From a bacterium (GTDB lineage: Bacteria; UBP6; UBA1177; JAKLFG01): DNA of 64,000 nucleotides. Positions 23,759 to 26,168 of this stretch are shown here, piece after piece. Position 1 is the stretch's first letter. Every line of letters starts with the position of its first letter. Both the position numbers and the translations under genes were made by a program. Below the pieces are notes generated by a model. That model searched no databases, was not told where the DNA came from, and saw only the letters and a program-made list of their open reading frames with translations. The stretch spans positions 1 to 64,000 of the forward strand of contig JAKLIW010000010.1 in the NCBI GenBank assembly GCA_022709425.1. Reading direction: 5' to 3'.

Positions 23759-24967
23759 TTATTTATTCTTATCGACCGGTAGCCATTTCTCTCCGCAGTA
23801 GGATATTGCCCATGCCCCGGTCGGGGCGGTGAGGACGATGCTGAGTACCGCCGTCGCGAGAATGATCTCGCCCGGCGCGGTCGGCATCCCGGCATTCTTC
23901 ATCATCATGAGCGCCGTGCCGCCGATGGCCGCCTGCACCGTCGCCTTGGGGATGTAGGCGACCACGACGAACAGCCGTTCTTTCACCGTCAGGTCGCTTC
24001 CCAGACAGCACAGATAGGCGCCGATGCTCCGCGCGGCGAGCGCCAAAAGGATGACCGCGCTTCCGGCGAGTCCCGCCTCCACCGCCACCCGGACATCGAC
24101 CTGCGCCCCGACCAGCGTGAAGAGCAGTATCTCGGCGAAGACCCATATCTTCGCCAGTTTCGCCGATATCTCGTGCGCCATCCGTTCCTGTTTTTCGAGG
24201 ATGATGTAGCCGATCGCCATCACCGCCAAGAGCGACGCGAAGGGGACGACATCCTCGGTTAGGTGTTCGATCCGCACCAGAAGCACCGATATGCCGAGTA
24301 TGACCAGCACCCGTTTGGTGGCGCGCGGGTTGAACCGAAGGAAGAGGCGGTAGAGAAGCATGCCGATCAGGATGCCGACGCCGATCCCGACGATGATCGA
24401 TAGCGGTATCCCGGCGATCTTCCACGCGAGGTTCGGCGACCGCCCGACATAGAAGCCGCAGAGCACGCTGTAGATGACGATGACGAACACATCGTCGATG
24501 GACGAGGCGGCCAGCAGCAGGGTCGGTATCCCTTTTTTCACCCCGCGCCGCTCCTCGATGAGTTTGAGCATGAGCGGCACCACCACCGCCGGCGAGACGG
24601 CCCCCAGCACGGTCCCCAGCATCGCCGATTCGAGATAGGTGAGCCCGAGGAACCGCGGCCCGAGCGCCGTCACTGTCGCCGCTTCGAGCGTCGCTGGGAC
24701 GAAGGAAAGCAGGAGCGCCATCCGGCCGACCCGGGCGAGCGCCTTGCGCGACAGTTCGAATCCGGCGCGTAACAGGATGACGATCAGCGCGATGAGCCGC
24801 AGATCGGCCGATATCGCCGCCATTTCGGGGCTCATCAGCCCCAGCACCGCCGGGCCGAGAACGACCCCGAGTAGCAGCATCCCGACCAGCCCCGGGATAT
24901 GCATTTTCCTGAAAACCCAATCGACGAGGACGCCGAGCAGGATGATCTCGGCCAGAGTAACCGCCAT
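23759..24967 (-). CDS. CPA2-type cation/proton antiporter under fluoride riboswitch control
   Basis: A 402-residue polytopic membrane protein. Signature segments are MHIPGLVGMLLLGVVLGP, the FELSRKALARVG loop, GAVSPAVVVPLML, and LAASSIDDVFVIVIYSVL carrying the twin Asp of CPA2 electrogenic exchangers. It ends after helix 12 with no cytosolic domain. The ATG at 24967 follows GGAGG; GTG at 24979 is less likely. The leader carries a fluoride riboswitch. Antiporters are a known class of fluoride-riboswitch target along with CLC-F and Fluc/CrcB, so this protein probably helps restore ion balance when fluoride enters the cell. It may itself move cations or anions; not decidable here. Confidence 0.9.
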   Translation of the reverse strand: MAVTLAEIILLGVLVDWVFRKMHIPGLVGMLLLGVVLGPAVLGLMSPEMAAISADLRLIALIVILLRAGFELSRKALARVGRMALLLSFVPATLEAATVTALGPRFLGLTYLESAMLGTVLGAVSPAVVVPLMLKLIEERRGVKKGIPTLLLAASSIDDVFVIVIYSVLCGFYVGRSPNLAWKIAGIPLSIIVGIGVGILIGMLLYRLFLRFNPRATKRVLVILGISVLLVRIEHLTEDVVPFASLLAVMAIGYIILEKQERMAHEISAKLAKIWVFAEILLFTLVGAQVDVRVAVEAGLAGSAVILLALAARSIGAYLCCLGSDLTVKERLFVVVAYIPKATVQAAIGGTALMMMKNAGMPTAPGEIILATAVLSIVLTAPTGAWAISYCGEKWLPVDKNK

Positions 24968-24995
24968 GATGACCTCCACAGCCGCAGGTTCATAC

Positions 24996-25045
24996 GGTAG
25001 GAGTCATCAGCCGATACGGGCGGTTATACGGGGGACTCCATCCCC
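24996..25045 (-). promoter_or_regulatory. Fluoride riboswitch (crcB motif)
   Basis: The minus-strand leader reads GGGG AUGGAGU CCCC, then AUAACCGCC, then GGCUGAUGACUCCUACC, matching the crcB-motif consensus in every diagnostic block. P1 is GGGG/CCCC, the small second stem is GCC/GGC around CGUAU, and the pseudoknot pairs loop GGAGU with ACUCC perfectly. The riboswitch begins a few bases after the predicted transcript start, and the antiporter ribosome site GGAGGT lies 16 to 21 bases downstream. The stretch ACCT(gcggctgtgg)AGGT between aptamer and start codon could mask that site in the fluoride-free state. Fluoride binding should turn expression on. Confidence 0.93.
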
Positions 25046-25054
25046 AGCGGGTCA

Positions 25055-25083
25055 TTCATACCGAATTGTCGGTCGTATTGCAA
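25055..25083 (-). promoter_or_regulatory. Promoter for the fluoride-responsive antiporter
   Basis: Minus-strand TTGCAA (25083-25078), 17-base spacer, TATGAA (25060-25055). Start near 25048, three bases ahead of the aptamer. Confidence 0.7.
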
Positions 25084-25091
25084 GTTTGCCG

Positions 25092-26168
25092 CTACCGGTC
25101 CCAACGGAACGGGGTGATGCCGGCGCATTCCCACATGAAATCCTTCTCCATACAGATATAGAGCGGCGGTTCGGAGATGTGTTTCCGTATCGTTTCGGCG
25201 ATGGCGCGGTAGAAACGAGCGCGGATCGGGGCGAGGATGCGCAGTTTATGGTCGTCGGCCGTGGGGAACATCTCGCAGAGCGTCAGTTCAGAGGCGGGCC
25301 AGCGGCGCCGCATGAGAGCGCTGAGCGACAGCGAATGGCGCAGGCCCCCCATGCTTATCCACGCTATTTTCTGCGGTTCGAGCGCCGTGAGGAGCCGGTC
25401 GGCGAGGGCACGGTAGTCGTCGAGGAACTCGTCGCGCATCACCATCGGGTCGAAATGGAGCGCGACGCGGCCGCCCGCCCGCTGGAAACGGATGGCGGCG
25501 GCGATGCGGTCAGCCATCGGCGCGGTGTGGCGTTCATCGGTCGCGTGGAAGCGGTCGATGTTGACCGACAGGCCGAGCACGAGGTCGGCGGCGGGGTACT
25601 GTTCCTTCGCGGCGATGAGGTTATCCACGACGGCCGACTTGGTCTTGAACTCGAACGAGATGCGATCCTCCCAGCCGTTGCGCACTATCATCGCGGCGAA
25701 AAAGCGCGATTCGTCGAGCAGGGCGTCGAGCGCGAGGCTGTCGGCCATCTCGCCGGTCCCGACGCGCAGGTGGCGGTGGCTCTCCAGATGCTTTCTTATT
25801 TCCGTTTCCACCGACTCACGATTCACGAATATCGAGATGAACGGATTATTGCCGATGAGGTGCTGGAGGATGCAGTAGGAACAGTCGAACGGGCAGCCCG
25901 ACACGCTCTGGATGGTGTGGTAGCCGCAGCAGCGGTAATCGGCGCCCGACGGACAGCGGCAGGAGGTCAGGAACGGCCCTTTCTTTTCGGTGAAGAAGAG
26001 CGTCGCCTTGGCGGCGGGGAAGAGTTCTTCGGGCGGGAGCGGCAGGAGTTCGGCGAGCAGTTCCTCCTTGGTGCGCCGCTCGACCGGCAGGTCGTAACGG
26101 GCCGCCGCTTCATTGGCGAGCGTCAGGTCGCTTAAACTGCTGTCGGCGACGATGCGGCGGATGGTCAT
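25092..26168 (-). CDS. Spore photoproduct lyase-like radical SAM protein
   Basis: A radical SAM enzyme with the CX3CX2C iron-sulfur motif at Cys92, Cys96, Cys99 (GCPFDCSYC). The following IFVNRESVETEI and LRVGTGEMADSLALD segments resemble the SplB family, which repairs the thymine spore photoproduct. An extra Cys group (Cys70, Cys72, Cys80, Cys81) precedes the motif. Length (358 residues) is close to SplB. SPL-like proteins occur in many non-sporeforming bacteria with unknown substrates, so lesion repair is possible but not shown. It follows the DUF1016 nuclease gene by six bases, without a clear ribosome site. Confidence 0.85.
   Translation of the reverse strand: MTIRRIVADSSLSDLTLANEAAARYDLPVERRTKEELLAELLPLPPEELFPAAKATLFFTEKKGPFLTSCRCPSGADYRCCGYHTIQSVSGCPFDCSYCILQHLIGNNPFISIFVNRESVETEIRKHLESHRHLRVGTGEMADSLALDALLDESRFFAAMIVRNGWEDRISFEFKTKSAVVDNLIAAKEQYPAADLVLGLSVNIDRFHATDERHTAPMADRIAAAIRFQRAGGRVALHFDPMVMRDEFLDDYRALADRLLTALEPQKIAWISMGGLRHSLSLSALMRRRWPASELTLCEMFPTADDHKLRILAPIRARFYRAIAETIRKHISEPPLYICMEKDFMWECAGITPFRWDR

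What the first reader, a model, noticed from the sequence alone, without database searches (positions are those of the whole stretch)
24996..25083. Fluoride riboswitch controlling a CPA2-type antiporter
The leader contains all diagnostic blocks of the crcB-motif aptamer, including a perfect GGAGU/ACUCC pseudoknot, directly after a clear promoter and before a cation/proton antiporter. Antiporters are a known but less studied fluoride-riboswitch target. It implies this antiporter takes part in fluoride tolerance. A stretch that can pair with the ribosome site suggests translational control.
Basis: partly seen in the sequence, partly recalled or inferred. Interest (0 to 1): 0.8.

Follow-up and report, generated by a model that had tools for sequence, protein, structure and literature searches.

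The report
Fluoride switch on NHA2-like antiporter gene
An RNA sensor for toxic fluoride sits directly in front of a bacterial relative of the human sodium/proton exchanger NHA2; this pairing recurs in many bacterial phyla and, in the one class tested, such bacteria almost always lack the usual fluoride channel, which suggests that the antiporter is an alternative fluoride-tolerance system.

Summary
Confirmed: a complete fluoride riboswitch aptamer (RF01734, 54 bits against a cutoff of 34) at 25054-24991 on the minus strand, and the only one in the genome. It ends 23 nt before the start codon of a PF00999 antiporter. The target class is already known: Na+/H+ antiporters are described as the second most common fluoride-riboswitch targets. 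New here is how specific the link is. The protein is not a generic CPA2 antiporter but an NHA/SLC9B-type one: nearest solved structures are bison and human NHA2, and the NHA2 site residues are essentially invariant in 83 bacterial relatives. 42 of 80 relatives carry the riboswitch directly upstream, across about ten phyla, with compensatory changes in the pseudoknot. In 393 Clostridia genomes, 53 of 109 fluoride riboswitches precede this antiporter; antiporter and Fluc/CrcB co-occur in 2 genomes against 14.3 expected (p=1e-5), while a control transporter family shows no exclusion. The window genome has no Fluc and no recognisable CLC-F. Leader folding supports a translational ON switch, though SD release is only partial in the model. 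Best reading: an electroneutral cation/H+ exchanger, induced by fluoride, that stands in for Fluc. Transport activity is untested. A second ion riboswitch (nhaA-I) lies 1.3 kb downstream.

The parts
25078..25083 (-). putative -35 box TTGCAA
   Evidence: read directly; 4 of 6 consensus; with -10 only 8/12, below the scan's threshold
25055..25060 (-). putative -10 box TATGAA, 17 nt spacer; start of transcription inferred near 25048
   Evidence: read directly; inference
24991..25054 (-). fluoride riboswitch aptamer (crcB motif)
   Evidence: Rfam RF01734, 54.0 bits, cutoff 34, full length
25035..25039 (-). pseudoknot 5' strand GGAGU
   Evidence: sequence; covariation of this helix in 48 relatives
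25000..25004 (-). pseudoknot 3' strand ACUCC
   Evidence: sequence; covariation
25000..25009 (-). anti-SD strand UGAUGACUCC, overlapping the pseudoknot strand and conserved aptamer linker
   Evidence: pairs with 24977-24967 in the minimum-energy fold; duplex stronger than with any of 38 riboswitch-less start regions
24967..24977 (-). SD and start region GGAGGUCAUCA that the anti-SD strand can sequester
24959..24965 (-). GGCGGUU of the first codons, complementary to the aptamer's conserved AACCGCC (25025-25019)
   Evidence: minimum-energy fold; not tested for conservation
23759..24967 (-). NHA/SLC9B-type cation/proton antiporter, 402 aa
   Evidence: PF00999; NHA2 in PDB E=1.9e-43; NHA2 site residues conserved; AlphaFold2 pLDDT 86, best Foldseek hit human NHA2 7b4l

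Best explanation
This is a genuine fluoride riboswitch that turns ON translation of an NHA/SLC9B-type cation/proton antiporter. Without fluoride, the aptamer's 3' strand (UGAUGACUCC) pairs with the SD and start region and hides it. Fluoride with Mg2+ locks that strand into the pseudoknot, and the start site becomes easier to open. The antiporter then exchanges a monovalent cation for a proton, electroneutrally as in NHA2. This counters the pH disturbance of HF entry, or lowers the pH difference that traps fluoride inside. In organisms that carry it, it serves in place of the Fluc/CrcB fluoride channel. Shown here: the riboswitch, the gene identity, the conserved association and, in Clostridia, the exclusion of CrcB. 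Inferred: ligand response of this copy, the translational mode, the transported ions, the direction of transport and the physiological effect.
For: RF01734 at 54 bits. The same riboswitch stands directly upstream of the antiporter in 42 of 80 relatives, scattered over the tree with at least 10 forced gains or losses, with covarying P1, P3 and pseudoknot. The only other fluoride riboswitch above cutoff in the window's phylum also precedes a member of this family, which is not the closest relative of the window's protein. In 393 Clostridia genomes 53 of 109 riboswitches precede this family; antiporter x CrcB 2 seen, 14.3 expected, p=1.1e-5; control CLC family x CrcB 15 seen, 17.5 expected. CrcB is absent from the window genome and from 47 of 50 antiporter genomes. 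The window's CLC lacks CLC-F motifs. NHA2 residues E214, R431, K459, D277, D278 are conserved in nearly all of 83 members, and NHA2 is electroneutral (PMC8850199). Opening the SD costs 2-6 kcal/mol less with the aptamer folded.
Against: The folding model leaves the SD largely paired in the aptamer-folded state too, in a weaker hairpin. Anti-SD pairing is only moderately better than chance once the SD itself is held fixed (p=0.03), and the set of terminator-less leaders as a whole is not significantly enriched (p=0.08). The closest relatives by identity (Spirochaetota, Alphaproteobacteria, Kiritimatiellota) mostly lack the riboswitch. Species relatedness was not controlled in the exclusion test, and it was made in one class only. 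In C. difficile the antiporter is reported in an operon with CLC-F (PMC11477304), so it need not act alone. The genome is 91% complete, so an unseen CrcB is possible.
Confidence: 0.6

Rival explanations
1. The antiporter itself exports fluoride (F-/H+ exchange or H+-F- cotransport), making it a third fluoride-exporter family beside Fluc and CLC-F.
For: Exclusion of CrcB in Clostridia and stand-alone riboswitch control in genomes without Fluc. A Drosophila member of the same subfamily (Nha1) was proposed to cotransport H+ and Cl- (reported in PMC9174904).
Against: The NHA2 cation-site residues are all kept; Cl- transport was ruled out for NHA2 itself (PMC8850199); no residue separates riboswitch-bearing from riboswitch-less members at the threshold used.
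Confidence: 0.15
2. Accessory role: the antiporter repairs pH or cation balance but does not replace an exporter; the missing CrcB reflects shared ancestry and habitat (anaerobes), or another unknown exporter does the main work.
For: This is the accepted view of Na+/H+ antiporters in fluoride regulons (PMC11139923). C. difficile has CLC-F and an antiporter in one riboswitch operon (PMC11477304). CrcB is also uncommon among genomes without the antiporter (83 of 327 Clostridia).
Against: A control transporter family with a similar patchy spread shows no exclusion of CrcB; half of all fluoride riboswitches in Clostridia serve this one family.
Confidence: 0.3
3. The riboswitch acts by transcription termination rather than on translation.
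For: 34 of 44 riboswitch leaders examined have a T run typical of a terminator.
Against: The window leader has 23 nt between aptamer and start codon, no T run there, and no terminator reported on this strand before the start codon.
Confidence: 0.1

Closest known systems
Fluoride riboswitch (crcB motif, RF01734)
   Same: full-length aptamer, all conserved blocks, pseudoknot
   Different: nothing essential; very short expression platform with extended pairing to the start region
Fluoride-riboswitch-controlled Na+/H+ antiporters (reported class, PMC11139923; C. difficile CD0656-7, PMC11477304)
   Same: riboswitch upstream of a cation/proton antiporter gene
   Different: here the antiporter is the first gene behind the switch, in a genome without detected Fluc or CLC-F, and is assigned to the NHA/SLC9B subfamily
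NHA2 / SLC9B2 (bison 7p1i, human 7b4l)
   Same: E=1.9e-43, fold TM 0.81, D277/D278, E214-R431 and K459 kept
   Different: bacterial, lacks the long N-terminal part of NHA2 (alignment begins at NHA2 residue 142), under a fluoride riboswitch; transport not measured
Fluc/CrcB and CLC-F fluoride exporters
   Same: also controlled by fluoride riboswitches
   Different: unrelated protein families; CrcB not found in this genome and the only CLC lacks the GNN/GREG signature
NapA / NhaA electrogenic antiporters
   Same: NhaA fold and DD motif
   Different: the Lys that forms the salt bridge is replaced by Arg (R313) with Glu partner E95, as in electroneutral NHA2

Membership tests
Fluoride riboswitch RF01734 | covariance score above Rfam gathering cutoff | tested here: met
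   54.0 vs 34 bits
Fluoride riboswitch RF01734 | conserved pseudoknot between the P1 loop and the 3' strand | tested here: met
   perfect in the window; 100% paired with changes on both sides in 3 of 5 pairs in relatives
Fluoride riboswitch RF01734 | binds fluoride and changes gene expression | not testable with these tools
   needs in-line probing and a reporter
translational fluoride riboswitch | aptamer strand and SD sequestration are mutually exclusive | tested here: inconclusive
   anti-SD overlaps the pseudoknot strand; opening is 2-6 kcal/mol cheaper with the aptamer folded, but the SD stays mostly paired in the model
NHA/SLC9B subfamily of CPA2 | DD motif, TM4 Glu (E214) paired with TM11 Arg (R431), Lys459 | tested here: met
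   D158 D159 E95 R313 K341; nearly invariant in 83 members; PDB and fold hits to NHA2
NHA/SLC9B subfamily of CPA2 | electroneutral Na+(Li+)/H+ exchange | not testable with these tools
   needs proteoliposomes
CLC-F exporter in the same genome | GNNLI/GMGLI and GREG motifs | tested here: not met
   the only CLC found has GVGLL and GLEGP
Fluc/CrcB exporter in the same genome | PF02537 match | tested here: not met
   none in G000 (91% complete); control search positive in 10 of 14 known genomes

The most novel reading that the evidence does not exclude
A clade of bacterial NHA/SLC9B-type antiporters is a stand-alone fluoride-tolerance system that replaces Fluc: the most frequent fluoride-riboswitch target in Clostridia, spread through about ten phyla, acting through cation/proton exchange or even by moving fluoride itself.
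Probability: 0.4. Interest if true: 0.75.

Novelty: new member of a known kind. Interest (0 to 1): 0.5.

Why it matters
Antiporters behind fluoride riboswitches have been read as accessory pH helpers. The near-absence of Fluc in genomes with this family, and its identity as a relative of human NHA2, make a direct test possible: can one of these proteins alone protect a bacterium that has lost its fluoride channel, and does it move cations, protons or fluoride? Either answer would say how many bacteria without known exporters survive fluoride.

Tried and rejected
Another ion riboswitch in front of the riboswitch-less relatives: none found. General enrichment of start-site complementarity in riboswitch leaders: not significant as a group (p=0.08); the window, L038, L059 and L077 stand out most. 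A conserved partner gene downstream of the antiporter: none recurrent among riboswitch carriers beyond one pair. Residues that separate riboswitch-bearing from riboswitch-less antiporters: none at the 70% level. Exclusion between antiporter and CLC-F: too few CLC-F genomes to tell (1 seen, 1.8 expected). First impression that 47 of 50 genomes without CrcB proves replacement: weakened because CrcB is in only 22% of Clostridia, so a same-set comparison was made instead. Plasmid hits added no riboswitch evidence.

Full report
Observation. Rfam places a full-length fluoride riboswitch at 25054-24991 on the minus strand (54.0 bits, cutoff 34, E=3.5e-12). It is the only one in the 3.0 Mb genome. It lies in the 124-nt gap between a spore-photoproduct-lyase-like gene (stop at 25092) and an antiporter gene with ATG at 24967, SD GGAGG at 24977-24973 and stop at 23759.

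The gene. The protein (402 aa) matches PF00999 and finds bison and human NHA2 (SLC9B2) as nearest solved structures (E=1.9e-43). An AlphaFold2 model (mean pLDDT 86) has human NHA2 7b4l as best Foldseek match (TM 0.81). The NHA2 site residues D277, D278, E214, R431 and K459 correspond to D158, D159, E95, R313 and K341; E95 and K341 are invariant in 83 bacterial members, and R313, D158 and D159 nearly so. In NHA2 the Glu214-Arg431 pair goes with electroneutral Na+(Li+)/H+ exchange, and Cl- transport was ruled out there (PMC8850199); Glu214 was called unique to NHA2 members. I therefore assign it to the NHA/SLC9B subfamily and predict, without measurement, electroneutral cation/proton exchange.

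The association. A scan of GTDB genomes with four family members gave 80 relatives at 47-70% identity. A covariance model built from 16 aptamers found a fluoride riboswitch within 400 nt upstream of 42 of them. In three more (L022, L048, L065) the riboswitch precedes a dynamin-like GTPase gene that is followed by the antiporter. Rfam found no other riboswitch in front of the negatives. The carriers fall in about ten phyla, and the label needs 17 changes on the tree (10 forced by well supported branches), so gain, loss or transfer was frequent. In the aptamer alignment the three helices, pseudoknot included, show 88 double-sided changes, against 21 in shuffles and 0-20 when slid. In the window's phylum (28 genomes) one other genome, of another family in the same order, has a riboswitch above cutoff (a third match fell below it), and it precedes a 42% identical antiporter that groups elsewhere in the tree.

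Relation to exporters. The window genome has no CrcB, and its one CLC lacks CLC-F motifs. 47 of 50 genomes with the antiporter lack CrcB. Because CrcB is patchy, I compared the same 393 Clostridia genomes: CrcB in 85, the antiporter family in 66, both in 2, with 14.3 expected (Fisher p=1.1e-5). As a control, CLC proteins outside the GNN type (81 genomes) co-occur with CrcB in 15 (17.5 expected) and with the antiporter in 17 (13.6 expected). Fluoride riboswitches at or above cutoff number 109 in 90 genomes; 53 lie 34-341 nt upstream of this antiporter. Of 156 genomes with CrcB, the antiporter or GNN-type CLC-F, 150 have exactly one. Caveat: relatedness of these genomes was not controlled, since the handles carry no kinship.

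Mechanism of control. From the inferred start of transcription the unbound leader folds so that UGAUGACUCC (conserved aptamer linker and pseudoknot strand) pairs with GGAGGUCAUCA (SD to start codon), and UAACCGCC pairs with the first codons (-40 kcal/mol). With the aptamer helices enforced and the pseudoknot strands withheld, opening the SD costs 2-6 kcal/mol less, depending on the length folded, but a weaker hairpin remains. The duplex is stronger than with any of 38 riboswitch-less start regions; against shuffles that keep the SD, p=0.03. L038, L059 and L077 show even closer mimicry (GGAGUCAUC or GGAGUCGUC before AUG), but terminator-less leaders as a group are not significantly enriched (p=0.08). 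A translational ON switch is the likely mode; translational fluoride riboswitches are known (PMC13273304).

What the antiporter does. HF enters, dissociates and acidifies the cell, and fluoride accumulates with the pH gradient; antiporters have been read as pH helpers, and are described as the second most common riboswitch target class (PMC11139923). The exclusion of CrcB suggests a stronger role: an alternative way to keep internal fluoride tolerable. Conservation of the cation site makes cation/H+ exchange more likely than fluoride transport, although a Drosophila Nha1 was proposed to cotransport H+ and Cl- (PMC9174904). In C. difficile the antiporter is reported with CLC-F in one operon (PMC11477304), so it is not always alone.

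Verdict. The interest lies in the family-level pattern, which is testable.

Noticed in passing
window 23664-23608 (-): A second ion riboswitch: nhaA-I RNA (RF03057, 42.6 bits, cutoff 37; the class is known as Li+-I, with Na+ variants) with its own promoter-like sequence, before an unknown 109-aa membrane protein (ATG 23573-23244) and a DUF4147/MOFRL glycerate kinase gene. A GGUGUA/UACACC hairpin brackets the SD. A fluoride and an alkali-ion riboswitch thus sit 1.3 kb apart.
   Followed up: partly
L005 (own genome), L004 and L006 (same genus and family): Further nhaA-I RNAs stand before a small lipoprotein gene (VDVNSF.T(D/E)CLKNCAM.FNGC), with DnaJ upstream in the relatives; the published survey reports nhaA-I only from Alpha-, Beta-, Gamma- and Deltaproteobacteria.
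   Followed up: partly
L022, L048, L065: Fluoride riboswitch followed by a dynamin-like GTPase gene (GQFKRGKST) and then the antiporter: a possible further fluoride-regulon member.
   Followed up: partly
L053, L054, L056 and relatives; L024, L026: Antiporters of the Desulfobacterota group carry an extra C-terminal domain of about 100 aa; two others seem to carry CBS-like domains.
   Followed up: no
L112: Intact fluoride riboswitch in front of an antiporter gene that looks shortened by an internal deletion.
   Followed up: no
G335 contig C19 (L141 and neighbours): CLC-F and the antiporter lie on opposite sides of one fluoride riboswitch, the antiporter downstream of it and CLC-F divergent.
   Followed up: no
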